64,000 bases of DNA from a virus. Under the pieces are notes generated by a model. It ran no database searches. It saw only the letters and a list, made by a program, of their open reading frames with translations, and was not told the origin of the DNA. The position numbers and the translations under genes were made by a program. This document shows positions 1,366 through 22,191 of this stretch, piece by piece (position 1 is the stretch's first letter; every line of letters begins with the position of its first letter). The DNA lies in the IMG/VR virus record IMGVR_UViG_3300027749_000058, positions 46,936 to 110,935 of that record, one strand, 5' to 3'.

Positions 1366-1396
1366 AAAAAAGAAGGGTTATTTACCCTTCTTTTTT
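1366..1396. terminator. Bidirectional terminator between convergent genes
   Basis: A 13-bp A/T-flanked stem (1366-1378 with 1384-1396; core GAAGGGT/ACCCTTC) has a 5-nt loop and gives a U-run in both directions. It overlaps the 3' end of the leftward clpP gene and can also stop rightward transcription from the gene ending at 1298. Confidence 0.85.
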
Positions 1397-2058
1397 GTTT
1401 TAACAATCTCATCAATAATTCCATATTCTACAGCCTCTTCAGCACTTAACCAAAAATCACGAGCAGCATCTTCCGTAACTTGTTCTGCGGATTTACCACA
1501 AAAACCACCTAATAACTCAAATAAAATTTTATTTGTCTTTTCCCATTCAACAAAATTAATTCTTGCATCTTGAATGTTACCTCCAGCACCACCTGAAGTT
1601 TGATGTAACATAGTCTTAGAGAATTTTAAAGAACTACGTTTACCTTTGGTACCTGCTCCAAGTAATACAGAACCCATTGATGCGGCCATACCTGTATTTA
1701 CAGTTCTAATGTCACAAGAGATGTAGTTCATTACATCTACCATAGATAGTCCTGATTTAACACTCCCACCTGGAGAGTCAATATGCATTGTGATATCAGT
1801 TTTATCTGAAGAATCTAAATACATTAATTGAGCTTGAACAACGGTAGACATTCTATCATCAACTCCGCCTGCGACCCATAGTAATCGGTCTCTCATTAAT
1901 CTTGAGAAAATATCCATCTGAGTTACTCTCATTTCTCTTTCTTCCAAGATATAAGGAGTCATTGATGATTCAATATGGTTTCCAATATTGTGTAAGTCTA
2001 ATGAATTCTTCCCCAAATGTTTTACGTAATAATTTTGAAAATCTTGTCCTACTGTCAT
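1378..2058 (-). CDS. clpP: ClpP-type serine protease
   Basis: The 226-residue protein matches ClpP throughout. The catalytic triad is visible: Ser127 in GMAASMGS, His152 in MLHQ and Asp201 in ARDFWLSAEEA. The oxyanion/strand motif DSPGGSV is at 94-100. ClpP forms a tetradecameric cytosolic chamber fed by a Clp ATPase. A ClpC-like ATPase with a ClpP-binding loop lies at 20176-22191. The N-terminus carries about 30 residues more than mature E. coli ClpP. The gene is third in a leftward cluster (HNH, small protein, clpP). Phage ClpP homologues can act as head-maturation proteases, but a separate T4-type prohead protease is present, so a degradative role is favoured. Confidence 0.93.
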   Translation of the reverse strand: MTVGQDFQNYYVKHLGKNSLDLHNIGNHIESSMTPYILEEREMRVTQMDIFSRLMRDRLLWVAGGVDDRMSTVVQAQLMYLDSSDKTDITMHIDSPGGSVKSGLSMVDVMNYISCDIRTVNTGMAASMGSVLLGAGTKGKRSSLKFSKTMLHQTSGGAGGNIQDARINFVEWEKTNKILFELLGGFCGKSAEQVTEDAARDFWLSAEEAVEYGIIDEIVKTKKKGK

Positions 2059-2104
2059 AATTTATATTTTTTACAAAAGTAATATTTTTTTTTTATAAAA
2101 AAAA

Positions 2105-2395
2105 TTATTCTGTAATTTCTTTATTAGATTCTGGTTCTGTTGCTTTCATATTAACTCCTGTTCCTTCGGGAATGTCTTCTTCACACATATAAATGTGAAC
2201 TTGTTCATTATTTTTAAAAACAATTACTTTTTTAACATTTTCTCCTAAATTAACATCTCCTGTAATATCAACGACAATTCCTTCATCATCTTTTAATATT
2301 AACCCTAAAGCTCTTGCAAAGATTAATGATGAGTTTAATAAATCTTGTGGATTTTGTCCTTGTCCGGCTTGATTTGGGTTTGTATAATTATCCAT
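2105..2395 (-). CDS. Small acidic protein of unknown function
   Basis: This is a 96-residue acidic protein in the clpP cluster, 46 bp upstream of clpP and 36 bp after the HNH gene. It has a Gln/Asn-rich N-terminus and a central predicted beta region (IVVDITGDVNLGE, VIVFKNNEQVHIY). There is no membrane segment. The family is not recognised. Its position suggests cotranscription with clpP and possibly an accessory role, which is inference only. Confidence 0.7.
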   Translation of the reverse strand: MDNYTNPNQAGQGQNPQDLLNSSLIFARALGLILKDDEGIVVDITGDVNLGENVKKVIVFKNNEQVHIYMCEEDIPEGTGVNMKATEPESNKEITE

Positions 2396-2431
2396 AATTA
2401 TTTTTTGTATTTTAAAGTTAATATTTTGTTT

Positions 2432-2920
2432 TTAATAAACAAATGATTTTTGATATTCATTCCAAACTTTTTGTAATCCATCTGTTTCATTTATTAATGA
2501 TGGTATAAAGGGCTTATGTTTCATTACCAATTTGGCTTCTTCAGGAGTTTTACTTCCTTTTTTGAGATTACATTTAAAACATGATGTAACCAAGTTTGTC
2601 CATTCATTTCCCCCACCTTTAGATTTAGGGATTACGTGGTCTAATGTTAGTTCTTTTTTTGACCCACAATAAACGCATTCGTGTCCATCTCTTTTATAAA
2701 TTCTTGATCTATTGGCCCTTAAATTTTTGGCTTGATGTTTAATATATTTTAATAATCTAATAATTAGTGGGCGCAAAAATGTTTTATATCCGCTAACAAT
2801 AGGGTTATCATCTGATTTAATTAATTCAGCCCTACCTTTATCAACCAATACAAAACCCCGCCTAATAGTTGTTATATTAAGAGGGGTGTAGTCATAATTT
2901 AATACTAAAACACCGCTCAT
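2432..2920 (-). CDS. HNH endonuclease
   Basis: The 162-residue protein has an HNH nuclease domain at about 72-122. It shows the zinc pair C82xxC85, the catalytic stretch LTLDHVIPKS (H95), the TNL Asn109, and the second zinc pair C114xxC117 followed by N118. The N-terminal 60 residues (VLNYDYTPLNITTIRRG) are typical of the small stand-alone HNH proteins common in Bacteroidota and their phages. It is the first gene of the leftward operon with clpP. It may be a homing-type or packaging-associated nuclease; the sequence does not decide. Confidence 0.9.
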   Translation of the reverse strand: MSGVLVLNYDYTPLNITTIRRGFVLVDKGRAELIKSDDNPIVSGYKTFLRPLIIRLLKYIKHQAKNLRANRSRIYKRDGHECVYCGSKKELTLDHVIPKSKGGGNEWTNLVTSCFKCNLKKGSKTPEEAKLVMKHKPFIPSLINETDGLQKVWNEYQKSFVY

Positions 2921-2963
2921 TACAATAATTTTTTACAATAATAGTTTATTTTATGATAAAAAC

Positions 2964-2985
2964 AAAAAAGGGGTCAAAGACCCCT
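2964..2985 (-). terminator. Terminator of a small leftward gene
   Basis: A 7-bp stem AGGGGTC/GACCCCT with a 3-nt loop (2969-2985) is followed, in the leftward direction, by six T residues. It lies upstream of the HNH gene, so it must end a transcript from the right. That supports the 32-codon reading frame at 3004-3102. Confidence 0.75.
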
Positions 2986-3003
2986 AATTAATATACTACA
3001 GAT

Positions 3004-3102
3004 TTAGTAATAGTTTATGGTTTGAGGTTTTTTAATTCTCAATACATCCGAGTTCTCATACTTAATAATCTCCAAAAGACTTTCTCTATTTCTGTTTATC
3101 AT
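3004..3102 (-). CDS. Possible 32-residue protein
   Basis: This short ATG frame starts MINRNRESLLEIIK and ends PQTINYY before TAA. It is charged with a helical first half. The support is contextual: a strong factor-independent terminator lies 18 bp beyond its stop codon, and no other leftward gene needs it. The family is unknown, and it could instead be a non-coding transcript. Confidence 0.4.
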   Translation of the reverse strand: MINRNRESLLEIIKYENSDVLRIKKPQTINYY

Positions 3103-3124
3103 AATAATAAATATCTAAAAAAAT

Positions 3125-3154
3125 TTTGTGAAATCAATTATTATATTATCTTTG
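3125..3154 (+). promoter_or_regulatory. Bacteroidota-type promoter
   Basis: TTTG (3125-3128) and TATCTTTG (3147-3154) are separated by 18 bp, matching the Bacteroidota primary sigma factor consensus (TTTG, TAnnTTTG). The start codon of the next gene is 16 bp downstream. Confidence 0.8.
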
Positions 3155-3170
3155 TAAAAATTATTGAGAT

Positions 3171-3470
3171 ATGATTCATTTACCAACAGCAACAACTATG
3201 GGAACAAGTTTCCATGATACAACATTTAAATCAACTCCGAATCAATTAATTGAGGTATTAGGAGAAATCACCTATAAAGGTAGTAGTGACGAAAAAAGCA
3301 CTATGGAATGGGTTAGAGAATTGGATAGTGCGGATGTTTTCACCGTATATGATTGGAAGTATTATAGAGAACTTGAAATGGATGAAGAAATCCTATGGCA
3401 CATTGGAGGAAAAAATAAATACATAACCGAACAGGCAAAAAAAGAAATTCTTAACCTTTTAAATAAATAA
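3171..3470 (+). CDS. Unknown 99-residue protein
   Basis: The gene starts with ATG 16 bp after a clear promoter. The protein is soluble and mildly acidic, with several Trp/Tyr residues (EWVRELDSADVFTVYDWKYY) and a Lys-rich C-terminal helix. There are no recognised motifs. It is followed after 3 bp by another small gene, so the two form a short operon leading into the lipoprotein gene. Confidence 0.7.
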   Translation: MIHLPTATTMGTSFHDTTFKSTPNQLIEVLGEITYKGSSDEKSTMEWVRELDSADVFTVYDWKYYRELEMDEEILWHIGGKNKYITEQAKKEILNLLNK

Positions 3471-3473
3471 AAT

Positions 3474-3752
3474 ATGCCAGATTTTTATGTTGATACTATT
3501 ACAGTAGATGCTTACGAGTATGTAACGAGTTGTACCAAGAGTGAAATTAAAGAATTAATTTCGGAATTAGTTGATGGTGATTACCTTCCATCATCAGTAT
3601 TAAAATTAAATAAGGAAGGTAAGGTAGACGATGGACTTGGAAGATTACAATCTGATTTTGTAGAAAAATTAGATAAATTATCTAAAGTTTATTATTCTTT
3701 ATCTAAAGAGGATGAAGAATTTTTGCAAACAATTTTTAACAAATACATATAA
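3474..3752 (+). CDS. Unknown acidic 92-residue protein
   Basis: The protein is soluble and acidic, with mostly helical sequence. It starts MPDFYVDTITVDAYEYV and has a Lys/Leu-rich C-terminal half. It lies 3 bp after the preceding gene and 9 bp before the lipoprotein gene, so a shared transcript is likely. I do not recognise the family. Confidence 0.7.
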   Translation: MPDFYVDTITVDAYEYVTSCTKSEIKELISELVDGDYLPSSVLKLNKEGKVDDGLGRLQSDFVEKLDKLSKVYYSLSKEDEEFLQTIFNKYI

Positions 3753-3761
3753 ATAAAAACT

Positions 3762-4508
3762 ATGAAAATCAAACAAATTTTCCTTGCGGTAGCTATCACC
3801 TTATTAGCAATTTCTTGTACTAAACAGGATATCCCGGTACCACAACAAGATAATGTACTTCAAACTAACTCAGTTGCTGCAACATCAAGTGTAACAACTG
3901 AAACAAATAATAAGGCATATATTTTTGTTGAACCAAATTCAAAATTCCAAACGGTTAAGACTTATTTATCAAGTTTACCGAAAACACCTTTATACCCAAT
4001 TAATTTTACAGGATTTTTTGGGGTTAATGCCAATGCTTGGAAATATACATATCAAAACTATGTAGATATGCCTTATTGGAATAACGGAACACTTCCATCG
4101 ATTATTGAATCCAATATCCCACAAACATCTGGTGGTGTTGATTCATACGGTAATGCTAAATTGGCTTATTGTTTTGAGACAATTAAAATACCAAAAAATA
4201 CCACAGTTGGAATGGCTTGGATTACAATTTTAGTCCCTGTTTCAGCAATGAACAACGATATTAAAAGACTAAGGACGGTATATTCATATGAAAAAAATGC
4301 CACAACAGGAGTTCTTATAACAAATGGTAGTATTAAAGGTTGGACATATACTATGGATAATATCATCTTTAGTTATGTAATTAACTATCAAGGAAATAGA
4401 CTTCCTAAAGGTCTTTACAGACTTTATAGTACATACCCAGATACAGGTTTAAAGGCTAACTTGAATGATAAAAATGACTATTACTTAAAAGGTAATAGTA
4501 TTGAATAG
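3762..4508 (+). CDS. Phage-encoded lipoprotein
   Basis: A type II signal peptide is clear: MKIKQ, a hydrophobic run, then the lipobox LAIS|C at residues 16-20. The mature 229-residue protein follows with a Thr/Ser/Gln-rich linker. The body is rich in Tyr, Asn and aromatic residues, with a beta-type pattern. It should be exported and lipidated on the host envelope. Phage lipoproteins often block receptors (superinfection exclusion) or alter the surface, but no motif proves that here. It is third in a small operon that starts at 3171. Confidence 0.75.
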   Translation: MKIKQIFLAVAITLLAISCTKQDIPVPQQDNVLQTNSVAATSSVTTETNNKAYIFVEPNSKFQTVKTYLSSLPKTPLYPINFTGFFGVNANAWKYTYQNYVDMPYWNNGTLPSIIESNIPQTSGGVDSYGNAKLAYCFETIKIPKNTTVGMAWITILVPVSAMNNDIKRLRTVYSYEKNATTGVLITNGSIKGWTYTMDNIIFSYVINYQGNRLPKGLYRLYSTYPDTGLKANLNDKNDYYLKGNSIE

Positions 4509-4536
4509 ACCAAATCCTAAATGGGACTCAAAAAAG

Positions 4537-4567
4537 TTTGAATTTTGAATATAATTTCTTATCTTTG
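4537..4567 (+). promoter_or_regulatory. Promoter of tRNA-Thr transcript
   Basis: TTTG (4537-4540) and TATCTTTG (4560-4567) are 19 bp apart. The transcript would enter a strong hairpin and then tRNA-Thr. Confidence 0.85.
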
Positions 4568-4584
4568 ATAAAAGTGGATAAAAT

Positions 4585-4620
4585 GTGTAGTAGCCACAGG
4601 GAAGGTACCTCCCACTACAC
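4585..4620 (+). other. Leader hairpin before tRNA-Thr
   Basis: The outer stem GTGTAGT/ACTACAC (4585-4591 with 4614-4620) stacks on an inner stem GGGA/TCCC (4599-4602 with 4610-4613). It lies between promoter and tRNA, 6 bp before the tRNA 5' end, and is probably a processing or stability element. Confidence 0.6.
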
Positions 4621-4626
4621 TCTTAA

Positions 4627-4699
4627 GCCTCCTTAGCTCAACTGGTAGAGCAATAGTTTTGTAAATTATAGGTTGTTGGTTCGATTCCGACAGGAGGCT
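4627..4699 (+). tRNA. tRNA-Thr (TGT)
   Basis: A full cloverleaf is visible. The acceptor GCCTCCT/AGGAGGC is perfect. The anticodon stem is ATAGT/ATTAT with loop TTTGTAA, giving anticodon TGT. The T-loop is TTCGATT. CCA is not encoded. Confidence 0.95.
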
Positions 4700-4714
4700 C
4701 AAAAATTATTTATT

Positions 4715-4942
4715 ATGTTTTGGATTATTTATTTATTGTGTGCGGTTTATTGTTTTATTAAATTGCAAAAAAGTTACAAAAAAAGGTCTTTGGATGGTGT
4801 TATTGGTGTTTCTCCTGGTTTGGACGCCATAATGATAATTATATTATCTCCTGTGTTAGCAATTATTGATGTTAGTTTAACTTGGATTAGGTTATATAAA
4901 GAAGCTGAACAATCAAGAATAGACCAAGAAAAAATATTATAA
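4715..4942 (+). CDS. Small membrane protein
   Basis: The ATG at 4715 was chosen because the upstream in-frame codons lie within tRNA-Thr. The 75-residue protein has two probable membrane helices: the N-terminal MFWIIYLLCAVYCFI and a second around LDAIMIIILSPVLAIIDVS. They are joined by a basic loop (KKR) and followed by a charged tail, suggesting an inner-membrane location. The family is unknown. It sits 15 bp after the tRNA and 2 bp before the next gene. Confidence 0.7.
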   Translation: MFWIIYLLCAVYCFIKLQKSYKKRSLDGVIGVSPGLDAIMIIILSPVLAIIDVSLTWIRLYKEAEQSRIDQEKIL

Positions 4943-4944
4943 CT

Positions 4945-5292
4945 ATGGCTCATCCAAACTTACACGCAAAATCATCCGCAAAAAAATTTGGTGGAAAACC
5001 TGAAGATTATATCCATTTACATGAATGGTTAGATGAAACCAAGTCTTGGTTTGGAGATTCTTTACACAGGATGTTTAGACACCATAGTGAAGGTATTTTT
5101 GAGATGGAGAAAAGGTTTGGATCAGAATTTAAAAATAGTGATGGAAAGATAGTTTATACCAGATATGTGGGAGAACAGCATGTGAAAGAAGATTGTAATA
5201 ATTATATTCCATCCGCAAAAGAATATATTAATAATATCTCAACAAATCAGCGTCCTCAATGGATGACGAGAACACTTAAACTGGAAGACTAA
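4945..5292 (+). CDS. DUF6915-like protein
   Basis: This 115-residue soluble protein has a distinctive pattern: an N-terminal HAKSSAKKFGG followed by a segment with EDYIHLHEWLDE, then HRMFRHHSEGIF, then RYVGEQHVKED. It is rich in His and Trp. I recall this pattern from the DUF6915 family, found in phages and bacteria with no known function. The assignment is from memory of the family, not a search. It lies between small genes of a rightward run. Confidence 0.65.
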   Translation: MAHPNLHAKSSAKKFGGKPEDYIHLHEWLDETKSWFGDSLHRMFRHHSEGIFEMEKRFGSEFKNSDGKIVYTRYVGEQHVKEDCNNYIPSAKEYINNISTNQRPQWMTRTLKLED

Positions 5293-5299
5293 TATTTAT
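5293..5299 (+). promoter_or_regulatory. TATTTAT box
   Basis: TATTTAT lies 5 bp before the ATG of the next gene. The same box recurs just upstream of many genes on both strands and is a candidate late-promoter element. Confidence 0.45.
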
Positions 5300-5303
5300 T
5301 GTT

Positions 5304-6032
5304 ATGAAAAGAGATGTTAATTCAATAAAGGTCTTATCACCTGACGACAAAAAATATTTAAAAAAAGTTTCCAATTATCTTAATTCATTGGGAATGCAAG
5401 ATGGTACCATTGAACTTGATTTTAGTGGAGAACGTGTAAGATTATCAGATATAAATTGGAACAGAGAAACCCATTTTACAAATAACTATAGCGCAGAAAT
5501 TCCTGATGGACTATTACCAATTCTTCAAAAGATAATAAATTATATTGATGTAAATGATTTATACCAACAACTTGATGAAGATGTAAACTATGAAAGAATA
5601 GAAATAGATATTGATACAAAAACAAAAGAAATATCTGTTTCTCATTTTTATTCATATTATGATAGGGGTAATGAAAATTCAGTTGAATTTGATTCCCAAG
5701 AAGATTTGGAACAATTTGATGGGTGGGTAAGTGATGAATTTGCAACAATAGATATACCTGAAACAGGAATATTAACATTAAGGTATAATGGTGGTGGTGA
5801 TTCAGGGTATATTGAAAATTCATTTGAAGAAAATGGTGACGCTGTTCCTGCTGAAATTGAAGATTGGTGTTATAGAGCCTTAGAACAAAACTTCGGTGGG
5901 TGGGAAATTAATGAAGGTTCCGATGGGGAATTCATTTTTGATTTTAATAATTCAATGGTTACTTTAAACCATACTATGAATACAGAAGAAAATGCAAGTA
6001 ATACTCTTTATGAAGAAAGTTTTGCTGATTAA
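5304..6032 (+). CDS. Unknown acidic protein, 242 residues
   Basis: The protein is strongly acidic throughout, with Asp/Glu-rich stretches and many Tyr/Asn residues. The pattern is mixed alpha/beta with no Cys clusters or membrane segments. A motif-like stretch LRYNGGGDSGYIE occurs at about 155-167. It is preceded 5 bp upstream by a TATTTAT box. The function is unknown. Confidence 0.7.
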   Translation: MKRDVNSIKVLSPDDKKYLKKVSNYLNSLGMQDGTIELDFSGERVRLSDINWNRETHFTNNYSAEIPDGLLPILQKIINYIDVNDLYQQLDEDVNYERIEIDIDTKTKEISVSHFYSYYDRGNENSVEFDSQEDLEQFDGWVSDEFATIDIPETGILTLRYNGGGDSGYIENSFEENGDAVPAEIEDWCYRALEQNFGGWEINEGSDGEFIFDFNNSMVTLNHTMNTEENASNTLYEESFAD

Positions 6033-6071
6033 TTTTATTTAATAAAAAAACAAAGTTTAGAGATTTTCGTA

Positions 6072-6086
6072 TATATTTGTATTTAT
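6072..6086 (+). promoter_or_regulatory. Possible stacked promoter elements
   Basis: TATATTTG (6072-6079; fits TAnnTTTG) is immediately followed by TATTTAT (6080-6086). The start codon follows 6 bp later at 6092, giving a very short leader. No convincing TTTG partner is seen at the right distance. Confidence 0.45.
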
Positions 6087-6091
6087 TAGTA

Positions 6092-6949
6092 ATGACACGA
6101 ATTATATCACTTACTGAATCTGAACTTATGAACGTTGTGAAAACAATTTTGGAACAAGTTAATCTTAATGATTATATTGCAGAAGATTTTGTAGAAGTTT
6201 CTCTTCATTATTTTAGACCATGGATTAAACAAACTCACGGTGAAGAAATTGGTCAATATCCATTATCTTTTTTGATTAAAAAATATTTGGATGAATTTTG
6301 TGAAGACAAACATATTGATTTAGGTAGCACCTATTATTCTAATAATTATAATAAATTGGCCGCGGTTGGTAAATTAATTGTAAAAAAAGGACTTCATGAA
6401 TTACCAAGCATGAAACCTAAAGGATTATTCACAGAAAAATATAAAAAAGGTATTACAGCACTACTTGATCGTTTGGATATTCCTGATTATATGGAACTTA
6501 AAATTACCGAACCAGAACCTTATAATGTTAAAATAAAAACATATATTAAATTTGAACCATTATTAAAATCTGAAAATAAATTATCGTCATCATCGGTAAT
6601 TACAAACAAGTTAAGACAATCTTTTCAAGATTATTTGGGAGTTACCTATGGATTGCCATCTCATGGAGAATTGAATTTATATATTGATGATACACCAGTA
6701 TATCTTGGTCAGGATGAATGGGTTAAAAATGTTTTTAATAAAGAACTTAAGAAAAAAATTAAAGAACTTCCTGAGGCAAAATCAGTTTTACGTTCAATTA
6801 AACTTGATGTGAGTCCATATTTATATGCCACAATAAAATTAGGATTCAATAGCAGTTCAAGATGGAATAGTCAAAAAGAATTTAAAGTAAAAGTTATTGA
6901 CCTTTTGAAAGAAATGGGATACAATACGTCAATATTAAAAGTAGAATGA
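6092..6949 (+). CDS. Unknown protein with capsid-targeting-like N-terminus
   Basis: The ATG at 6092 gives MTRIISLTESELMNVVKTILEQ; a TTG at 6077 lies inside the promoter-like sequence and was rejected. The first 22 residues match a leader pattern shared with other proteins here (basic start, LTE-x-x-L, ending ILE|Q). The remaining approximately 260 residues are soluble, mixed alpha/beta and Lys-rich, with no known motif. A terminator follows. Packaging into the head is an inference from the N-terminal peptide. Confidence 0.7.
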   Translation: MTRIISLTESELMNVVKTILEQVNLNDYIAEDFVEVSLHYFRPWIKQTHGEEIGQYPLSFLIKKYLDEFCEDKHIDLGSTYYSNNYNKLAAVGKLIVKKGLHELPSMKPKGLFTEKYKKGITALLDRLDIPDYMELKITEPEPYNVKIKTYIKFEPLLKSENKLSSSSVITNKLRQSFQDYLGVTYGLPSHGELNLYIDDTPVYLGQDEWVKNVFNKELKKKIKELPEAKSVLRSIKLDVSPYLYATIKLGFNSSSRWNSQKEFKVKVIDLLKEMGYNTSILKVE

Positions 6950-6960
6950 TTAAAACAATT

Positions 6961-7057: not shown

Positions 7058-7157
7058 GGTTCGGTAGCTCAGCTGGATAGTAGCGACAGCCTTCTTGGTC
7101 TATATTTTAGTATTACCAAGAAGCTGTAGGTCATTGGTTCGAATCCAATCCGGATCA
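7058..7157 (+). tRNA. tRNA-Arg (TCT) interrupted by a 25-nt insertion
   Basis: The acceptor is GGTTCGG/CCGGATC (one G-T and one T-G). The D-arm is TAGCTCAGCTGGATA-like and the T-arm is ATTGG/CCAAT around TTCGAAT. The anticodon stem ACAGC/GCTGT (7086-7090 with 7123-7127) encloses 32 nt instead of 7. Removing 7096-7120 gives a canonical loop CTTCTAA with anticodon TCT (Arg). The insertion pairs with the anticodon side: CTTCTTGGT (7091-7099) with ACCAAGAAG (7115-7123). Either this is a small intron or the gene is inactive. CCA is not encoded. Confidence 0.75.
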
Positions 7158-7208: not shown

Positions 7209-7212
7209 TTTT

Positions 7213-11046: not shown

Positions 11047-11118
11047 GGTGTTTGAAGCATTAAGGTGATGCACTAGTTTGTGGAGCTAGAAAAGACGGGT
11101 CGGTACCGTCCTTACACC
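11047..11118 (+). tRNA. tRNA-His (GTG) with variant T-loop
   Basis: The extended acceptor GGTGTTTG/CTTACACC includes G-1:C73, diagnostic of tRNA-His, with two internal T-T mismatches. The D-arm is GCAT/ATGC. The anticodon stem is CTAGT/GCTAG with loop TTGTGGA, giving anticodon GTG. The T-stem GACGG/CCGTC encloses GTCGGTA instead of the usual TTC-purine-A loop. Confidence 0.88.
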
Positions 11119-11143
11119 CATATTTTTTTTCTTAGTATCATAC

Positions 11144-11150
11144 TATTTAT
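11144..11150 (+). promoter_or_regulatory. TATTTAT box
   Basis: The TATTTAT box lies 4 bp before the start of the DUF5856-like gene. Confidence 0.45.
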
Positions 11151-11154
11151 ATGT

Positions 11155-11616
11155 ATGGAAAAAAAAGTAACTCTAACCAAAGAACAATTATTCAAGGTGA
11201 TGAACTTGAATGAGGCTGAAAATAAAAAAGAAAAAAATGAAACATCTGATGTTGTTGATATGATTGCAACATTACTTCATTCAAGAAGCCAAACTCATAT
11301 TTTTCATTGGCAAACAAAATCACAATCATCATTTGCTGAACATATGGCATTAGGAACTTATTATGATGAAATTGTTGGACTAATTGATGGTATTGTTGAA
11401 AGTTATCAAGGAAAATATGAAATAATTACAGGATACAAAACAGTTGAAATGGTTGATTACAAATCAACAGAACAATTAATAAGTTACTTTAGAGAATTAG
11501 ATAGCAATATTGAAAAAAATAGAAAGGGGATTAAAGAATCTTATATTCAAAATCAAATTGACGGACTTCAAGAGTTAATTTTTTCTACATTATATAAATT
11601 AAGATTCTTGAAATAA
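11155..11616 (+). CDS. DUF5856-like, ferritin-fold-like protein
   Basis: The ATG at 11155 was chosen, as upstream frame codons lie in tRNA-His. The protein has 153 residues. Residues 1-20 form a leader of the kind shared in this genome, ending NLNE|A. Residues 35-150 are helical, with HSRSQTHIFHWQTKS, AEHMALGTYYDE and IVESYQGKYEI. I recall this pattern from DUF5856 phage proteins, which resemble the ferritin/Dps helical bundle. Virion packaging is suggested by the leader. The function is otherwise unknown. Confidence 0.7.
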   Translation: MEKKVTLTKEQLFKVMNLNEAENKKEKNETSDVVDMIATLLHSRSQTHIFHWQTKSQSSFAEHMALGTYYDEIVGLIDGIVESYQGKYEIITGYKTVEMVDYKSTEQLISYFRELDSNIEKNRKGIKESYIQNQIDGLQELIFSTLYKLRFLK

Positions 11617-14923: not shown

Positions 14924-15148
14924 ATGGAGATAAACAGAAAAACGTGGAGAGGAACCTTTCAGGAGAATCTTTCTCAAATATTTTTAATGCTGGCACTGTT
15001 TTTCAATCCTTTTGGATTCGATGCCGTTCAATATTCCCTAATATTACTGACAGGCAGTTTATGGAAAGCGAACTTCGTCTTGTATTGTATAGCGGGAGTA
15101 TTTTTTGGTTGTTATATCTACTTTCGCAGATTATCTAAAAAAAATTAA
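14924..15148 (+). CDS. Small membrane protein, 74 residues
   Basis: The frame at 14924 was chosen over the overlapping frame at 14917. It encodes two clear membrane helices (LSQIFLMLALFFNPFGFDA and ANFVLYCIAGVFFGCYIYF) with a basic start (MEINRKTWRG) and basic end (RRLSKKN). I recall similar NPFGFDA proteins in other Bacteroidota phages, without function. It overlaps the convergent neighbour by 4 bp. Confidence 0.7.
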   Translation: MEINRKTWRGTFQENLSQIFLMLALFFNPFGFDAVQYSLILLTGSLWKANFVLYCIAGVFFGCYIYFRRLSKKN

Positions 15149-16638
15149 AGAGCTCTTAATTCACCATTTTTAAATGATTCAAAATTTGGACCAGGTATTA
15201 TAATAAAACGTCTACCTTCTCTTTTGTATTGGATAATACCTGCCAAAACAGCGGCAGAAAAGAATGATGAATATTGACCATCCCACCTACTTGCCGCTGA
15301 AAATTCAGAACTTCCTGGTCTGGCATATTCTTTTTTACCATCAACAACTCTTGATTTAAGAGTACCGATATATTCCAAGAAATCTAATTTTGTTCCATTA
15401 TCATATCCCGCATCTAAATAATCAACCATTTTTTTAATCATTCCTTTGTTTTTACCAAAGGTATAACCGCTATTTGGTTTGTTCCAAACTTTTGATGTTT
15501 CTGTACCAGATGCTTTTCGAACAAGTTTTGGGTTATTTTGAACATGTGTTAATATTCTGCTGCCAATATGTTTTCTAATTCCTTCGGCCATTTGAGAAAT
15601 AGTGTTTTGAATAATGTAAGTTGAATCAATTCCCCATTCTTCTAAACCGAGGTCTACATGATATGGTGTATTATCGTCACTCATAAACCCTATACTAGCA
15701 GTAAATGACTTAGTATCTTTAGTATCATATTTAATAAACATTTGATATTCATCAAAGAATCTGTTAGTACTCTTTGAATCAATTAATGATACTGTAACCA
15801 TACCTCCAGAACGTCCAAAATCAAAATTAGGAATATTTTCAAATCCTCTTACAAATACTGATAAAGTATAAGTTGATTGTAAATAATTTTTAATGTCTAC
15901 TGAGGTGTAACCCATTGAGTTAAAAACTGATATTAATAGTTTGGAAGTACCACTTGTTCTAATTATTTCATAATCTTTGTTAATTGCATCTATTATTTCA
16001 GGAAATGCGTAATTCATAACATCAATTTCTCTTTGGTTCATTGGTACGTCTTGAGAATCATAATATCTTGTATGTCCTTCATTATCAAAATGAATTGCAA
16101 TTTTTGAATAAGTTCTGTTTGTGGAATTGTCTTTGTTAATAATAAAATAAAGGGCTTGGTTACCTTGAGTATATCTTCCAAAATGTCCTGAGCTATGTGA
16201 GGATACACACCATTTTGTGTTGTAACCGTATTTACAGGAAGCTTCCTCGGTTTTTGGTTTTATAACTAAAAACTTATTATCTTCGTAAATCTTATCAGCT
16301 TGTTTTTCTAATTCTTTCTCTTTTTCTTTCTCATGAAATGGTTTTAAAGCTTCTTCCAATTCAGAAAAAGTATTGTATTGATTGATATCTTTCTTTTTTA
16401 ATTGAGATTGGTATTTGTCAAAATCTTTTACTAAATCAACGGCAATATCAACATTCATGTCAATATCCGAATTTGGGTCTAAAACCTTTAAGATAAAATC
16501 TGTGTATTTGTGATTAAAATCTTGTAAATCAGAAATACCCAACACAAAGTCTAACACTTCATCATCAAACTTGCTTGAATATTTTTTCTTTAAATCTTCT
16601 TTTCTACCTTCTTTAACAAGGATTGATATTAATTTCAT
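15145..16638 (-). CDS. Large protein with WC...Y motif, unknown function
   Basis: The 497-residue protein starts MKLISILVKEGRKEDLKKKY, a basic leader-like start. Around residues 110-185 there is DNKFLVIKPKTEEASCKYG, then TKWCVSSHSSGHFGRYT and ALYFIINK. This WC/F/Y module recurs in many large-phage proteins, but its role is unknown to me. The rest is soluble mixed alpha/beta with a C-terminal Phe-rich domain. A TATTTAT box lies just upstream. A virion-internal location is possible from the leader. Confidence 0.7.
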   Translation of the reverse strand: MKLISILVKEGRKEDLKKKYSSKFDDEVLDFVLGISDLQDFNHKYTDFILKVLDPNSDIDMNVDIAVDLVKDFDKYQSQLKKKDINQYNTFSELEEALKPFHEKEKEKELEKQADKIYEDNKFLVIKPKTEEASCKYGYNTKWCVSSHSSGHFGRYTQGNQALYFIINKDNSTNRTYSKIAIHFDNEGHTRYYDSQDVPMNQREIDVMNYAFPEIIDAINKDYEIIRTSGTSKLLISVFNSMGYTSVDIKNYLQSTYTLSVFVRGFENIPNFDFGRSGGMVTVSLIDSKSTNRFFDEYQMFIKYDTKDTKSFTASIGFMSDDNTPYHVDLGLEEWGIDSTYIIQNTISQMAEGIRKHIGSRILTHVQNNPKLVRKASGTETSKVWNKPNSGYTFGKNKGMIKKMVDYLDAGYDNGTKLDFLEYIGTLKSRVVDGKKEYARPGSSEFSAASRWDGQYSSFFSAAVLAGIIQYKREGRRFIIIPGPNFESFKNGELRAL

Positions 16639-16642
16639 ACAA

Positions 16643-16649: not shown

Positions 16650-16659
16650 TACCAATAAG

Positions 16660-17010: not shown

Positions 17011-17040
17011 TTTGTAATGATAATAAAATAAATGAAATAA

Positions 17041-17066
17041 AAAAGGGTTCAAAATAGAACCCTTTT
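17041..17066. terminator. Terminator of the tmRNA gene
   Basis: AAAAGGGTTC/GAACCCTTTT (17041-17050 with 17057-17066) has a 6-nt loop, with A/T runs on both sides. It lies 8 bp beyond the tmRNA 3' end on the leftward strand. Confidence 0.88.
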
Positions 17067-17074
17067 TTATTATG

Positions 17075-17470
17075 TGGTGGAGGTGCAGGATTCCGCCTCC
17101 TGGTCTTGTTCGCCACACCATAGATGGACTACACGTTTAGTACAACATCGGTTCTCAATGTTACGAAATATTAGGTTTGATATAAGTGAGAAACTAACCT
17201 ACAAACAACTTGGTCTCAGAGTTATTTTAGAGGAGCTCTGACCTGTGACCCCTTTGACTCATTTCTGTTCCAAGGTACGTATGAGAAACCCCGTGGTTGT
17301 TCTCTACAATTAAGCAGCAACAACAACAGCTTCTCTAGTTAAACCTAAAGTAGCCATTTTAGACAATGTATTGTCATTTGAATTTTATCATCATAGATTT
17401 AAGTCATAGATGAAGTTTGACTACGTGCCCATTTACCATATAAACGCCAATCAATGCTAACGTCACCCCC
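17075..17470 (-). ncRNA. ssrA: Transfer-messenger RNA (tmRNA)
   Basis: Read leftward (396 nt): 5' GGGGGTG (17470-17464) pairs with CACCTCC (17085-17079), followed by A and an encoded CCA. The T-stem CAGGA/TCCTG lies at 17102-17086. The tag frame ATG-GCT-ACT... ends at TAA (17312-17310) and reads ATLGLTREAVVVAA after Met, with the AA end typical of degradation tags. A hairpin encloses the region after the stop codon (17283-17304), and further stems occur at 17212-17243 and 17173-17200, where pseudoknots are expected. The promoter and terminator fit exactly. The T-loop is GGCGGAA, not the usual TTC-purine-A. The exact resume codon is uncertain. Confidence 0.87.
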
Positions 17471-17489
17471 ATATGTTAAAGAACTTATT

Positions 17490-17520
17490 CAAAGATAAGT
17501 ATAAATATTGAAATTCCAAA
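17490..17520 (-). promoter_or_regulatory. Promoter of the tmRNA gene
   Basis: On the leftward strand, TTTG (17520-17517) and TATCTTTG (17497-17490) are 19 bp apart, ending 20 bp before the tmRNA 5' end. Confidence 0.88.
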
Positions 17521-17529
17521 TAAAACCGG

Positions 17530-17537
17530 TATTTATA
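17530..17537 (+). promoter_or_regulatory. TATTTATA box
   Basis: The box lies 6 bp before the ATG at 17544. A TTG lies 19 bp further upstream. Confidence 0.45.
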
Positions 17538-17543
17538 AACAAT

Positions 17544-18584
17544 ATGGCATCATTTGACACATTTATGGCTTTGAGGGATTACGTTAAAGGTAAAATCCAA
17601 AAATCAGAATTAGAGGATTCTGATCCAGACATTTATCATGTTCGAGAAGACAGGTCTAACCGTGGACAAAGCGTTATTAAAATAGGTTTTAATGATGATA
17701 AATTTTGGGAAAAAGTAGGTTTACACGAAGATGATGTTTGGTTTATGAAGATGCTTAAATCACCTTATTCGGATTATGAGTTTAGGGATTCGTATAGTGT
17801 TACTGATGATTTTAGAAATGGGTATATCATTTTTTATGACTTTAATGAGGATAATATTGAAAAATTAAAACGAATATCAAGATACATTTATCCTAAAAAA
17901 TTTGACTTGGAGAATGAAGATTTTAGGTGTGACTTTGCCGACAAATTATTAAGTTCATTTAAAAGTCAAACTCAAGATATTATTTACGACTACCAAACTG
18001 AAAAAAATAGGGAAATGACACAAGTTGCTGAAGAAAGCATTGATAAAGAGTTAAATAACTATTTTAATGAATTTGGGTTTACCTTTGTAGCTGACGATGA
18101 ATTTACAACAACTGTCGCAAATCTCATGATGTGGTATATCAGGGAAAATTCATTACAACTCTCAATTTCAGAATTATTACCTAAAATTTTTAGTTCAAGT
18201 AAACTTTCAATAGGTGGATGGCAAGAAAATTCTTATGAATTTCAAGATTCTGAAAAATTTGATAGTATTTCATTTAATAATTATGCTGAACGTAAATTAG
18301 ATGAAATAATTGAAAAGATTGAAGATGGTGCGGATGATGATTTTAATATGCAAGATTATATTGCTATGATAGATAGAGTTAGTAAAAAGTTTGAGGTCGG
18401 TAGATGGTATAATTTACCAAAAAAGAAAGATATTAGGTTTTATGTTGAAAATTTTGAAATGAACCCAAATAAGGTTGTCGTTAAACTTTCTAGGGCACTC
18501 CAACAAAAAAAATTAAAATTAAGTGAAGAGAATTTTTACCACTTACTTTATCAACCTACATTATTTAATTTGGAAGAAATATAA
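17544..18584 (+). CDS. Unknown acidic protein, 346 residues
   Basis: The ATG at 17544 (MASFDTFMALRDYV) was chosen over a TTG at 17508, which lies upstream of the TATTTATA box. The protein is acidic, Phe/Tyr/Asp-rich and mostly helical, without Cys clusters, signal peptide or membrane segments. No family is recognised. The promoter of the next gene lies inside its 3' end. Confidence 0.72.
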   Translation: MASFDTFMALRDYVKGKIQKSELEDSDPDIYHVREDRSNRGQSVIKIGFNDDKFWEKVGLHEDDVWFMKMLKSPYSDYEFRDSYSVTDDFRNGYIIFYDFNEDNIEKLKRISRYIYPKKFDLENEDFRCDFADKLLSSFKSQTQDIIYDYQTEKNREMTQVAEESIDKELNNYFNEFGFTFVADDEFTTTVANLMMWYIRENSLQLSISELLPKIFSSSKLSIGGWQENSYEFQDSEKFDSISFNNYAERKLDEIIEKIEDGADDDFNMQDYIAMIDRVSKKFEVGRWYNLPKKKDIRFYVENFEMNPNKVVVKLSRALQQKKLKLSEENFYHLLYQPTLFNLEEI

Positions 18585-18600
18585 TTTTTTTGTATCTTTG
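18569..18600 (+). promoter_or_regulatory. Promoter giving a nearly leaderless mRNA
   Basis: TTTG (18569-18572) and TATCTTTG (18593-18600) are 20 bp apart. The ATG begins only 4 bp after TATCTTTG, where transcription itself should start. Confidence 0.75.
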
Positions 18601-18604
18601 TTAT

Positions 18605-19447
18605 ATGATACAAGATTTACAATTACTTAAAGACGTTTTAAGCGTCCCCACCAAAACATATCAAGAAGACCTAATGGTTCAATACTTGGTTAATTGGTTA
18701 ACAGAAAACAATATCGAGTATTTTGTTGATGAATATAAGAATGTTTATGCAACAAAACAAGAATCGGTATTAATTCCAGAAAATTTCTATTTTCCGTGTG
18801 TGGTTGCGCATACAGATACTGTTCACAATATTGATGTAATCAATATTCGAGAAGAAATGTTACCAAATACTCAAGGTGAGTTAAAGTTGTCTTATAAGGC
18901 ATATAATGACGATCAACTCCCAACAGGTATTGGTGGTGATGATAAATGTGGTGTATTTGCGTGTTTAACTCTACTAAAAGAATTACCTTATTTAAAGGCG
19001 GCATTTTTTGTATCTGAAGAAACAGGTTGTCATGGTTCCATGAAAGCGAAAGAAGAATTTTTCACAAATGTTGGATATGGTATTCAGTTTGATGCTCCTG
19101 AAAATTGGATGATTACTGAAAAATGTTTTGGACAGGTTTTATTTGATAGAGATTCTGAATTTTTTGAAGCTTGTGATAAAGTATTAACTGAAGGAATGGT
19201 TAATGAAGATATGCAATATATGGTTCATCCATATACCGATGTTTATGCTTTAAGAGGAAAATTCAATTTTTCTTGTATTAATTTTTCAATAGGATATTAT
19301 AGATATCATACTGCTAATGAGTATGTAGTTGTTGAAGATGTGTTTAACGGAATTAATATGGGTCGTAAGATGATATCAAATCTTGGATACAAATTACACT
19401 ACAAAGAGGCTAAAGTATATGATTGGAAAAGTAGAAGTGTTTTTTAA
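18605..19447 (+). CDS. M20/M42-type zinc metallopeptidase
   Basis: The ATG at 18605 was chosen (280 residues). The two-zinc peptidase pattern is complete: VAHTDTVH (His69, Asp71), GIGGDDKCG (bridging Asp112/113), SEETGCHGS (catalytic Glu138, Glu139), FDAP (Asp163) and a late His235 (RYHTANEY). It is shorter than peptidase T because the dimerisation domain is missing or reduced. It is probably a cytosolic aminopeptidase or dipeptidase acting on short peptides. A possible link to the Clp proteases here, trimming peptide products, is inference. It overlaps the convergent gene by 4 bp. Confidence 0.85.
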   Translation: MIQDLQLLKDVLSVPTKTYQEDLMVQYLVNWLTENNIEYFVDEYKNVYATKQESVLIPENFYFPCVVAHTDTVHNIDVINIREEMLPNTQGELKLSYKAYNDDQLPTGIGGDDKCGVFACLTLLKELPYLKAAFFVSEETGCHGSMKAKEEFFTNVGYGIQFDAPENWMITEKCFGQVLFDRDSEFFEACDKVLTEGMVNEDMQYMVHPYTDVYALRGKFNFSCINFSIGYYRYHTANEYVVVEDVFNGINMGRKMISNLGYKLHYKEAKVYDWKSRSVF

Positions 19448-20124
19448 ATAAAATCTTCTAACTTATCTAAATATTTTTTTACCATCGGGTGATCGGCAAT
19501 ATCTGAATATTCCTCACCCGATTTTTTTATTTGTTTTATTTGGTCAATTATTTGTCTTAACGACATTTCAACCATTCTGGACATAGATGGATAATTTTCA
19601 ATGTAAGAAGACAACTTAAATTGACTCTTTGCGAATTCTATTGGGATATTAAGTTTAATCACTAATTTGGCAACCATTTGTTTTGCGAATCTATCTGCAT
19701 CTAATTCTAGATTCCAATATTCTTCATATAACTTTTCAAAGTCTTCTAAATCACCCGTTAATGGGTTTTCTAATTTGAACTTAGTCATTTGTTCTTCGTG
19801 TCTTATTTCGTGAAATATGGTATAAAGAAAATCACCTATTGTAATCATATTTCTAGGTGCACAGATAATGATTTGGTCTCTTGTTCTTACACCTGAATAT
19901 CCAGGACAAGCGTTCAAGAACTTAATCGTGAAGTTATTTTCTTGTATATAATTTTTAACAAAGTTTTTAATTTCCGAAACTTTTTCTTTTTGGTCTATAG
20001 GAAAGCTTCGTTTAAAATGATTCACTAATCTATCAAAATTAGAAATTTTTGGTGTATTATCATGTCCACTTGATTCTAAATTTGTGACAGATTCTAATAA
20101 AACTTTTCTGATTAAATATTTCAT
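19444..20124 (-). CDS. HExxH zincin-like protein
   Basis: The 226-residue protein's zinc motif HEIRH is at 105-109, and a downstream acidic helix (EEYWNLELDADRFA, about 134-147) supplies a likely third ligand. The first 11 residues (MKYLIRKVLLE|S) fit the leader pattern seen in other genes here. It is therefore a candidate protease packaged in the head and injected, or active in head maturation. A TATTTATA box lies 5 bp upstream on this strand. Confidence 0.75.
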   Translation of the reverse strand: MKYLIRKVLLESVTNLESSGHDNTPKISNFDRLVNHFKRSFPIDQKEKVSEIKNFVKNYIQENNFTIKFLNACPGYSGVRTRDQIIICAPRNMITIGDFLYTIFHEIRHEEQMTKFKLENPLTGDLEDFEKLYEEYWNLELDADRFAKQMVAKLVIKLNIPIEFAKSQFKLSSYIENYPSMSRMVEMSLRQIIDQIKQIKKSGEEYSDIADHPMVKKYLDKLEDFI

Positions 20125-20128
20125 TAGT

Positions 20129-20136
20129 TATAAATA
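20129..20136 (-). promoter_or_regulatory. TATTTATA box, leftward
   Basis: The leftward TATTTATA box lies 5 bp before the HExxH gene. Confidence 0.5.
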
Positions 20137-20141
20137 TAACA

Positions 20142-20165
20142 AACCCCCACATTTCTGTGAGGGTT
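20142..20165 (-). terminator. Probable terminator after the Clp ATPase gene
   Basis: AACCCCCAC/GTGAGGGTT (20142-20150 with 20157-20165) has one mismatch and a moderate T-rich tail leftward. Confidence 0.55.
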
Positions 20166-20175
20166 ATGTTTTAGG

Positions 20176-22191
20176 TTATTTACCTTTCTTCTGTATCTTG
20201 ATTTCTTCACCTTCTACTTTTATTGTATAAGTTTTACCTTCAATCATTTTACCTGTTAATACTTCTTCGGATAATAGGTCTTCGACCTTATCTTGAATTG
20301 CTCTTTTAAGAGGTCTTGCTCCATAAGATTCGTCAAATCCTACTTTTGCAAGATATTCAATCAAGGTATCATCATAAGTGATGGTGTATTTCATGTCTTT
20401 AAGACGATGCACCAATTTCTTAAGTTCAATATCAGTAATTTTCTTAATATCTTCAGGACTTAATGAATTGAATATAATTGTATCATCAATACGGTTCAAG
20501 AATTCAGGAGAGAAGAAATTTTTCATTTCTTTCATCAATACTTGTTTTTTAGCTTCCTCATTTGCATATACATTATTTGAGAAACCAATACCTGTACCAA
20601 AGTCTTGTAATTTTTTAACACCCAAGTTTGAGGTTAAAATAATTAATGTGTTCTTGAAATTAATTTTTCTACCAAGACTATCTGTTGCGTGTCCATCATC
20701 CAAGATTTGTAGTAAGATAGAAAACACATCTTTATGTGCTTTTTCTACTTCATCAAATAAGATTACTGAATATGGTTTGTTTTTAACTTTTTCAGTTAAT
20801 TGCCCACCTTCTTCATATCCAACATATCCTGGAGGAGCTCCCACCAATTTGGATATTGTATGTTTTTCTTGGTATTCACTCATATCCACACGGATTAAGG
20901 AATCTTCAGAACCAAACATTTCTTTTGCCAATTGTTTTGCCAAGTGTGTTTTACCTACACCAGTTGAACCTAAGAATATAAATGAACCAATTGGACGGTT
21001 AGGGTCTTTAATTCCCAATCTGTTTCTTTTGATTGATTTTGCAATCTTGATAACTGCGGCATCTTGACCAATTACCTTACCCATTAATTCTTTATCTAAA
21101 TTAATTAATGCGTTTTTATCATCAACATTCATTCTATTCACAGGAATTTTTACCATACTAGATACAACATCATATACGTTTTCAAGTGAGATTATTTTCT
21201 TGTCTTTTGATTGTTCTTCTTCAAACTTATTTTTTTCGCTTTCAAGTTTGGTCAACAATTTCTTTTCTTTATCGCGTAAATCTGCAGCTTGTTCGTAGTT
21301 TTGTTTTTTAACTACATCAATTTTTAATTGCTTAAGTTCCAATGCCTTTCTTTTTAAATCTTCAATTATTTCAGGAACTTTTATGTCGGTTTGCATACGA
21401 GCTCCAACTTCATCCAAGACATCAAATGCTTTATCAGGAAATTCACGTTCAGTAATATATCTGTCTGCCAATTTCACACAAGCTTCAATAATTTCATCAG
21501 AATAAGATACTTTATGAAATGTTTCGTATTTTTCACGAACATTTTTAAGAATTTGAATTGTTTCTACAACCGTAGATGGGTCAACAATTACCTTTTGAAA
21601 CCTGCGTTCCAACGCTCCGTCTTTTTCAATATTTTTGCGGAATTCATCAAGAGTTGTTGCTCCGATACATTGTAATTCACCACGAGATAATGCTGGTTTG
21701 AAAATATTGGAACCATCCATTGAACCTGCCGAATTACCTGACCCAACAAGAGTATGTATCTCATCAATGAAGATGATGATGTTTGGGTTTGCCTGAAGTT
21801 CTTCAATAATTACCTTCATTCTTTCTTCAAACTGACCACGATATTTTGTGCCAGCAACAACTGAAGTTAAATCAAGATTTACGATTCTTTTATCAATAAG
21901 ATTTTTTGGACATTCTCCACTTACAATCTTCATCGCCAAACCTTCAACAATTGCAGTTTTACCACAACCAGGTTCTCCTATAATAATAGGGTTATTTTTC
22001 TTTCTACGAGATAAGATTTGAGCTATTCTCAAAATCTCTTTATCACGTCCAATAACAGGATCTAACTTACCGGCTTCAGCCAATTTATTTAAATCCCTAC
22101 TGAAATTATCCAATACAGGTGTGTTACTGTCTGAATTTTGTTTTTCTTTTTTACTCATTATTTTGTCGTCATCATCAATAATATCATTCAT
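20176..22191 (-). CDS. clpC: ClpC-like AAA+ unfoldase
   Basis: The 671-residue protein has two AAA+ modules. D1 has Walker A GEPGCGKT at 72-79 and Walker B IIIFIDEIH at 138-146. D2 has Walker A GSTGVGKT at 408-415 and Walker B VILFDEVEKAH at 476-486. A short UVR-like insert (about 285-320, NYEQAADLRDKEKKL) separates them as in ClpC. The ClpP-docking loop IGF is at 535-537 (GTGIGFSNN). The N-terminal adaptor-binding domain of ClpA/C is absent, replaced by an acidic 25-residue start. It probably feeds the phage or host ClpP. It is divergent from hsp20 across a shared control region. Confidence 0.94.
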   Translation of the reverse strand: MNDIIDDDDKIMSKKEKQNSDSNTPVLDNFSRDLNKLAEAGKLDPVIGRDKEILRIAQILSRRKKNNPIIIGEPGCGKTAIVEGLAMKIVSGECPKNLIDKRIVNLDLTSVVAGTKYRGQFEERMKVIIEELQANPNIIIFIDEIHTLVGSGNSAGSMDGSNIFKPALSRGELQCIGATTLDEFRKNIEKDGALERRFQKVIVDPSTVVETIQILKNVREKYETFHKVSYSDEIIEACVKLADRYITEREFPDKAFDVLDEVGARMQTDIKVPEIIEDLKRKALELKQLKIDVVKKQNYEQAADLRDKEKKLLTKLESEKNKFEEEQSKDKKIISLENVYDVVSSMVKIPVNRMNVDDKNALINLDKELMGKVIGQDAAVIKIAKSIKRNRLGIKDPNRPIGSFIFLGSTGVGKTHLAKQLAKEMFGSEDSLIRVDMSEYQEKHTISKLVGAPPGYVGYEEGGQLTEKVKNKPYSVILFDEVEKAHKDVFSILLQILDDGHATDSLGRKINFKNTLIILTSNLGVKKLQDFGTGIGFSNNVYANEEAKKQVLMKEMKNFFSPEFLNRIDDTIIFNSLSPEDIKKITDIELKKLVHRLKDMKYTITYDDTLIEYLAKVGFDESYGARPLKRAIQDKVEDLLSEEVLTGKMIEGKTYTIKVEGEEIKIQKKGK

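What the first reader, a model, noticed from the sequence alone, without database searches (positions are those of the whole stretch)
1378..22191. A complete tagging-and-degradation set: tmRNA, ClpC-like unfoldase, ClpP, Hsp20
In one window the phage has a tmRNA, a ClpC-type ATPase with an IGF ClpP-docking loop but no N-terminal adaptor domain, an intact-triad ClpP, and Hsp20 sharing control with clpC. An M20/M42-type peptidase could finish peptide products. Together these could form a phage-owned trans-translation/proteolysis pathway that rescues ribosomes and destroys tagged host or phage proteins. Loss of the adaptor domain may free it from host adaptors.
Basis: partly seen in the sequence, partly recalled or inferred. 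Interest (0 to 1): 0.92.

Follow-up and report, generated by a model that had tools for sequence, protein, structure and literature searches.

The report
Phage tag-and-shred locus: tmRNA beside clpC
Large viruses of Bacteroidota-type bacteria carry their own ribosome-rescue RNA, which appends an unusually long, conserved protein tag, in the same locus as their own protein-unfolding enzyme and with their own protease elsewhere in the genome, so they may run a private protein-disposal system inside the cell they infect.

Summary
The parts are real. The window is a fragment of a jumbo phage (relatives of 309-326 kb; more distant kin are 635-642 kb mega-phages). It encodes ClpP with a full triad, an N-domain-less ClpC-like unfoldase with an IGF loop, Hsp20, an M20-type peptidase and a tmRNA at 17075-17470(-). 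ARAGORN misses the tmRNA and it scores below Rfam's cut-off, yet it is genuine. In 46 of 46 related clpC loci with enough flank a tmRNA lies 2-6 kb downstream on the same strand.

Apparently new: (1) the tag is 21-22 codons (28-29 in mega-phages), conserved as peptide, with an invariant internal Gly-Leu and no LAA end; (2) T-loop UUCRA is swapped for GGCRG, strictly coupled to D-loop GG to AG, with at least six changes on the tree; (3) group I introns sit in the T-loop of some relatives.

SmpB is absent from this contig and from four relatives of 317-326 kb, so it is probably supplied by the host; mega-phages carry it. That phage ClpC-ClpP reads the tag is inferred, not shown. Interpretation partly supported; a new variant of known kinds.

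The parts
17075..17470 (-). tmRNA gene (one-piece), CCA encoded
   Evidence: RF00023 39.9 bits, E 1.8e-12, full model; nhmmer E 6e-71 against the phage tmRNA family (family includes the window); ARAGORN negative
17310..17375 (-). tag reading frame GAC...GCT TAA: DNTLSKMATLGLTREAVVVAA*
   Evidence: resume codon set by invariant A at -4; codon-level constraint; tag table
17091..17097 (-). T-loop GGCGGAA in place of UUCRAnn
   Evidence: sequence; covaries with the D-loop, 18/18 against 54/54; T-stem covariation 100% paired
17457..17458 (-). D-loop AG in place of GG
17490..17520 (-). Bacteroidota-type promoter TTTG-N19-TATCTTTG
   Evidence: 26 of 63 tmRNA upstream regions carry it, 0.24 expected from shuffles; consensus from PMC7366714
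17039..17068 (-). intrinsic-terminator-like hairpin directly after the tmRNA
   Evidence: sequence AAAAAAGGGTTC-TATTTT-GAACCCTTTTTT
20176..22191 (-). ClpC-like AAA+ unfoldase without N-domain, IGF loop
1378..2058 (-). ClpP protease, intact triad
18590..19447 (+). M20 (PepT-like) peptidase between clpC and tmRNA
   Evidence: found beside clpC in almost all loci with enough flank
17508..18584 (+). orf358, unknown function, conserved between the M20 gene and tmRNA
   Evidence: 75 loci; confident model pLDDT 87.8, no match in PDB or BFVD
19444..20124 (-). protein with an HExxH-like motif (FHEIRHEEQ) directly downstream of clpC, in part of the lineage
   Evidence: 28 loci; no family match
22391..22786 (+). 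Hsp20 small heat-shock protein, divergent from clpC
   Evidence: Pfam HSP20 43 bits; found in about 20 of 80 clpC loci
33690..34115 (+). gp21/S77-like prohead protease (a separate head protease)
   Evidence: PF03420 78.8 bits at G000:80625-81050

Best explanation
A phage-borne trans-translation and degradation module. When ribosomes stall on cleaved or incomplete mRNAs during infection, the phage tmRNA, charged with alanine (G3.U70) and carried by the host's SmpB (a phage SmpB in some relatives), enters the ribosome and adds Ala + a 21-residue tag ending VVVAA (in relatives 21-22 residues, in mega-phages 28-29). The tag's internal K-[ML]-x3-G-L motif, not the universal LAA end, is what selection preserves, so it most likely presents the protein to the phage's own N-domain-less ClpC, which docks on the phage ClpP through its [IVL]GF loop. 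The M20 peptidase may trim the products to amino acids. SHOWN by sequence: the tmRNA family, resume codon, tag and its peptide-level conservation, clpC-tmRNA linkage, intact ClpP and ClpC motifs, a separate prohead protease, Bacteroidota-type promoters. INFERRED: charging, SmpB source, tag recognition by phage ClpC, ClpC-ClpP pairing, the role of the M20 peptidase, and which proteins are tagged.
For: Full-length tmRNA match within a set of 80 homologous sequences. Linkage 46/46 on the same strand within 2-6 kb, kept even at 56-58% ClpC identity in L168 and L169. Tag: A at -4 in 54/54 without being required, the position of E. coli A86 (PMC2481249); single-base codon changes synonymous 57% in frame against 33% and 13% out of frame; Gly11-Leu12 in 51/51 tags, Leu never at -3. 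ClpC: no N-domain and [IVL]GF in 91/91. ClpP triad motifs in about 86-88 of 90. Promoters: 26/63 against 0.24 expected.
Against: No experiment and no expression data. Linkage and tag conservation partly reflect common descent, and W01 and W02 keep both genes more than 200 kb apart. SmpB is absent in the nearest genomes, so the system is not self-contained. The tag still ends in Ala in 48 of 51 cases, so host ClpXP might still take it. The window's own T-loop is atypical and its RF00023 score is below the gathering cut-off.
Confidence: 0.55

Rival explanations
1. Ribosome rescue with host disposal: the phage tmRNA backs up or outcompetes the host tmRNA, and tagged proteins go to the host ClpXP or ClpCP. 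The phage ClpC and ClpP serve other substrates (host regulators, defence proteins), and the locus is only a neighbourhood.
For: 48 of 51 tags end in Ala with mostly small non-polar neighbours; SmpB is probably borrowed from the host; a phage with a complete tmRNA and no ClpP mentioned is known (PMC9004378).
Against: It does not explain a 21-29 residue tag with an invariant internal Gly-Leu, endings such as VVEA, VVKA, VVTI and EPATV (W01), or 46/46 linkage with clpC.
Confidence: 0.25
2. A non-degradative tag: the long tag sends stalled products to Hsp20 or to ClpC as a disaggregase, or to a compartment or complex, and ClpP is an unrelated housekeeping acquisition.
For: Hsp20 is divergent from clpC here; the tag consensus looks amphipathic (own reading).
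Against: Hsp20 was found in only about 20 of 80 clpC loci; ClpC keeps the ClpP-docking [IVL]GF loop in 91/91; ClpP occurs in all 8 genomes tested.
Confidence: 0.1
3. ClpP is the head-maturation protease and the link to tmRNA is accidental.
For: The top PHROG match is 'head maturation protease'.
Against: All 8 genomes tested also have a gp21/S77-like prohead protease (weak in W01 and W02); ClpP matches canonical ClpP far better than the ClpP-related head protease models (244 against 70-82 bits).
Confidence: 0.03
4. The window's tmRNA is a decaying pseudogene (odd T-loop, sub-threshold score).
For: 39.9 bits against a cut-off of 47; ARAGORN negative.
Against: The GGCRG loop strictly covaries with D-loop AG (18/18 against 54/54); the T-stem of this class shows both-side changes at all five pairs with 100% pairing; tag frame intact; promoter and terminator present.
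Confidence: 0.03

Closest known systems
Mesoplasma florum mf-SsrA tag and mf-Lon (dedicated tag-protease pair)
   Same: Longer tag than E. coli's, recognised by a dedicated protease (PMC9382460)
   Different: The protease is Lon and these organisms lack an active ClpXP; here a virus supplies the pair (recognition inferred) inside a host that presumably keeps its own. The mf tag keeps an NYAFA end; the phage tags have no such end and instead conserve an internal Gly-Leu.
Huge phages with tmRNA and SmpB (Al-Shayeb et al. 2020, PMC7162821)
   Same: tmRNA and SmpB reported in huge phages; the two nearest named genomes, LR745206 and LR756502, have the size of that study's largest genomes
   Different: That paper assigned tmRNAs with ARAGORN, which finds none in these two genomes, and its main text does not mention Clp. 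The clpC-tmRNA locus, the long tag and the GGCRG elbow are not described there.
Methylophage Melnitz tmRNA (PMC9004378)
   Same: Complete phage tmRNA; the authors suggest it may tag host proteins for recycling
   Different: Two-piece (permuted) tmRNA under a glutamine riboswitch; the paper's main text does not mention ClpP
Jumbo-phage ClpP, ClpS, ClpA and ClpX (PMC7824862); SPO1 adaptor-like protein acting on host ClpCP (PMC6873191)
   Same: Phages manipulate Clp proteolysis with their own parts
   Different: Not linked there to a phage tmRNA or tag
ssrA tagging by tmRNA-SmpB with ClpXP/ClpAP (E. coli)
   Same: Alanine-charged tmRNA, A at -4 of the resume codon, short ORF ending in a stop
   Different: Tag 21-29 instead of 10 codons, no LAA end, linked AAA+ unfoldase without N-domain, no SspB gene found

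Membership tests
tmRNA (RF00023) | tRNA-like domain: 7-bp acceptor with G3.U70, 5-bp T-stem, CCA | tested here: met
   T-stem 100% paired with both-side changes at all 5 pairs
tmRNA (RF00023) | internal tag ORF with conserved A four bases before the resume codon | tested here: met
   (54/54), for the rule
tmRNA (RF00023) | score over Rfam's gathering cut-off (a curator's threshold) | tested here: not met
   39.9 against 47 bits for the window; homologues reach 55.0 and 67.7, so the family is met and this member is divergent
tmRNA (RF00023) | consensus T-loop UUCRA with D-loop GG (consensus, not strictly defining) | tested here: not met
   GGCGG with AG; coupled replacement
trans-translation system | SmpB partner | tested here: inconclusive
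   none in this contig nor in G001-G004; present in G005, W01 and W02; host SmpB assumed
trans-translation system | tag is added to proteins and triggers degradation | not testable with these tools
   needs experiment
ClpC (HSP100 class I) | two AAA+ modules with Walker A and B, M-domain | tested here: met
ClpC (HSP100 class I) | N-terminal adaptor-binding domain | tested here: not met
   absent in 91/91, so filed as ClpC-like, N-domain-less
ClpC (HSP100 class I) | [IVL]GF ClpP-docking loop (absent in ClpB) | tested here: met
ClpP (S14) | Ser-His-Asp triad and full ClpP length | tested here: met
ClpP (S14) | tetradecamer that docks an AAA+ partner | not testable with these tools
   needs structure or biochemistry
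M20 peptidase | metal-binding His-Asp-Glu-Asp-His set | tested here: inconclusive
   motifs read by eye in the window protein; pattern counts across homologues incomplete for one motif

The most novel reading that the evidence does not exclude
A viral 'private degron' system: the phage tmRNA writes a long tag that host ClpXP handles poorly and that only the phage's own N-domain-less ClpC with phage ClpP reads, so stalled products are recycled on the phage's terms. In parallel the tmRNA elbow flips between two interchangeable tertiary codes (GG:UUCRA and AG:GGCRG), possibly as escape from group I introns that home into the T-loop.
Probability: 0.4. Interest if true: 0.87.

Novelty: new variant of a known kind. 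Interest (0 to 1): 0.74.

Why it matters
Dedicated tag-protease pairs are known from mollicutes; a virus carrying one would be a new way to control protein turnover in an infected cell, and it gives a new candidate orthogonal degron (21 residues, N-domain-less ClpC, ClpP). It also shows that ARAGORN overlooks or truncates these tmRNAs (10 of 49 canonical and 0 of 14 GGCRG found; a recent database lists only 79 phage tmRNAs, PMC11915505). The coupled change of the D- and T-loop is a natural experiment on the tRNA elbow: six or more swaps between two solutions in one gene family.

Tried and rejected
Head-protease role for ClpP: rejected (separate S77-like protease in 8/8 genomes). tmRNA as pseudogene: rejected (covariation). 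SspB adaptor: none found. ClpS and an RF-1/ArfB-like protein: none in the window's contig or G001-G005, present in W01 and W02. Bacterial tmRNAs with a GGCRG loop: one hit in the bacterial and archaeal genome collection, judged chance because it lies inside a long coding ORF of a GC-rich MAG contig; the pattern also fixed acceptor bases, so this is not a full census. Loose viral-contig pattern: 107 hits, mostly chance, sorted afterwards by profile. orf358 as a known adaptor: no family and no fold match. blastn of the tmRNA against phage records: no match. Genome-encoded proteins ending like the tag: none convincing. In one search locus L212 was mislabelled GGCRG; corrected. Host (Bacteroidota) SsrA tags could not be extracted here for direct comparison. 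A structure job for the HExxH protein was dropped after an alignment error.
Full report
WHAT IS THERE. The window is bases 46,936-110,935 of a 110,935-base linear IMG/VR record. Its ClpP and ClpC-like proteins are near, among named phage records, to two very large phage genomes, LR745206 (634,780 b; ClpP 65%, ClpC 58%) and LR756502 (642,428 b; ClpP 48%, ClpC 58%). Their sizes fit the Mahaphage clade of Al-Shayeb et al. 2020, whose five genomes over 634 kb were predicted to infect Bacteroidetes (PMC7162821). Much closer relatives in IMG/VR include contigs of 309-326 kb, so the window is a fragment of a genome of roughly that size (inference).

THE tmRNA. ARAGORN and Rfam at gathering level find none, but RF00023 matches end to end at 17075-17470 on the minus strand, 39.9 bits, E 1.8e-12. 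The gene has a 7-bp acceptor with G3.U70, a 5-bp T-stem, encoded CCA and a terminator-like hairpin directly after it. A profile made from related tmRNAs then finds tmRNAs across the lineage and in both mega-phages: W02 231,978-232,360 and W01 204,891-205,273. ARAGORN recovers 10 of 49 canonical and 0 of 14 GGCRG-type members, and where it succeeds it can cut the tag short (AEEAVVEA in L217).

LINKAGE. Of the 80 best ClpC loci from IMG/VR, chosen by ClpC similarity alone, 46 have at least 6.5 kb downstream; all 46 have a tmRNA there, 1.9-5.6 kb away, same strand. An M20-type peptidase (opposite strand as a rule) and usually orf358 lie between. In L168 and L169, only 56-58% identical in ClpC, the tmRNA is still downstream on the same strand although M20 and orf358 were not detected. 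In W01 and W02 the two genes are unlinked. ClpP lies about 18 kb from clpC in the window and occurs once in each of G000-G005, two to three times in W01 and W02. All eight genomes also carry a gp21/S77-like prohead protease (weak matches in W01 and W02), so ClpP is not needed for head maturation.

THE TAG. In 54 tmRNAs anchored on the KM motif, the base four before the first conserved codon is A in all. E. coli A86 at the same distance fixes the resume codon (PMC2481249), and position -5 is a pyrimidine in all 51 distinct tags. The tag is therefore 21 codons (43 of 51) or 22 (8 of 51), against a commonest length of 10 in a database of 97,179 tmRNAs (PMC11915505). Window: (A)DNTLSKMATLGLTREAVVVAA. 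Mega-phages have 28-29 codons, read by eye with the same -4 rule: W01 GNVNEVVTREDLVAALQNNMLLVEEPATV, W02 DNVSEVGTREDIVSALQNNMISVGDLAVA. Constraint is on the peptide: single-base codon differences are synonymous 57% of the time in frame, 33% and 13% in the other frames. Gly11 and Leu12 are invariant in 51 of 51, Lys6 in 46, while the C-terminus is loose: last residue A 48, I 2, S 1; penultimate V, A, T, G, E, I, K; never Leu at -3. This is the reverse of ordinary SsrA tags, where the LAA end is the conserved degron (general knowledge). Caution: tags were found with patterns that assume parts of the motif.

THE ELBOW. Canonical relatives have T-loop UUCRAnn with D-loop GG; the window and others have GGCRGnn with D-loop AG. 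Counting distinct sequences: 18 of 18 GGCRG have AG, 54 of 54 scored UUCRA have GG (Fisher p 2e-17, not corrected for relatedness; three further UUCRA rows were shifted in the alignment and read as GG by eye). On the ClpC tree the state changes at least six times, for example between L205 and L208, whose tags are identical. In the GGCRG class the T-stem pairs in 100% of cells, with both-side changes at all five pairs. It is thus a working alternative, not decay. A strict pattern for this loop in 84,980 bacterial and archaeal genomes gave one hit, judged chance.

INTRONS AND HOST. In L214, L250 and L263 a group I intron (72-98 bits) interrupts the tmRNA; exon reading puts it between U55 and C56, and L227 looks the same. 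By the numbering of PMC11915505, as I read it, this is subsite 3, which they report only in Bacteroidia. tmRNA upstream regions carry TTTG-N17-22-TAnnTTTG in 26 of 63 cases against 0.24 in shuffles, spacer 19 in 22 of 26, the primary sigma consensus of Bacteroidetes (PMC7366714). ClpP's best NCBIfam model is PRK14514, a Bacteroidetes-type ClpP from memory. Together these point to Bacteroidota hosts. GGCRG loops have no U55, so an intron-escape role is possible but untested.

CLP PARTS. ClpC: Walker A and B of both modules, D1 pore GTKYRGQFE in 89 of 89, [IVL]GF loop in 91 of 91, never an N-domain. From general knowledge, N-domain-less ClpA still degrades ssrA-tagged proteins because D1 pore loops bind the tag, so adaptor-free work by this enzyme is plausible. 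No SspB was found; ClpS and an RF-1/ArfB-like protein only in W01 and W02. SmpB: absent in G000-G004, present in G005, W01 and W02.

MECHANISM. Most likely: host (sometimes phage) SmpB delivers the phage tmRNA to stalled ribosomes, the long tag is added, and phage ClpC-ClpP reads it, with the M20 enzyme finishing peptides. The last three steps are inference. The nearest precedent for a long tag with its own protease is Mesoplasma mf-SsrA with mf-Lon (PMC9382460). Main rival: host ClpXP does the disposal.

VERDICT. Observation confirmed; interpretation partly supported. Trans-translation parts and ClpP in huge phages are known; the conserved clpC-tmRNA locus, the long internally conserved tag and the coupled elbow switch are, as far as the tools could show, new.

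Noticed in passing
L214 12871-13087, L250 15113-15340, L263 10641-10865, L227 about 15120-15334: Group I introns in the T-loop of phage tmRNAs, between U55 and C56; close relatives (L257 and L263) differ in having it.
   Followed up: partly
L263 11887-12296 (-): A GOLLD RNA (330 bits) about 1 kb from the tmRNA.
   Followed up: no
window 17508-18584: orf358: confident AlphaFold model (pLDDT 87.8) with no fold match in PDB or BFVD, conserved between clpC and tmRNA.
   Followed up: partly
W01 (LR745206) and W02 (LR756502): Mega-phages carry SmpB, ClpS, an RF-1/ArfB-like protein, two to three ClpPs, N-domain-less ClpC and tmRNAs with 28-29 codon tags; their T-stem seems to have a sixth pair.
   Followed up: partly
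window 7058-7157 (+): A tRNA-like match of 100 nt (45 bits) that ARAGORN misses; long variable arm or insertion.
   Followed up: no
window 2432-2920 (-): HNH protein whose HNH part matches the IscB model (E 1e-16) over 72 residues only.
   Followed up: no
window 11080-11616 (+): DUF5856 protein (63 bits), homologues in W01 and W02.
   Followed up: no
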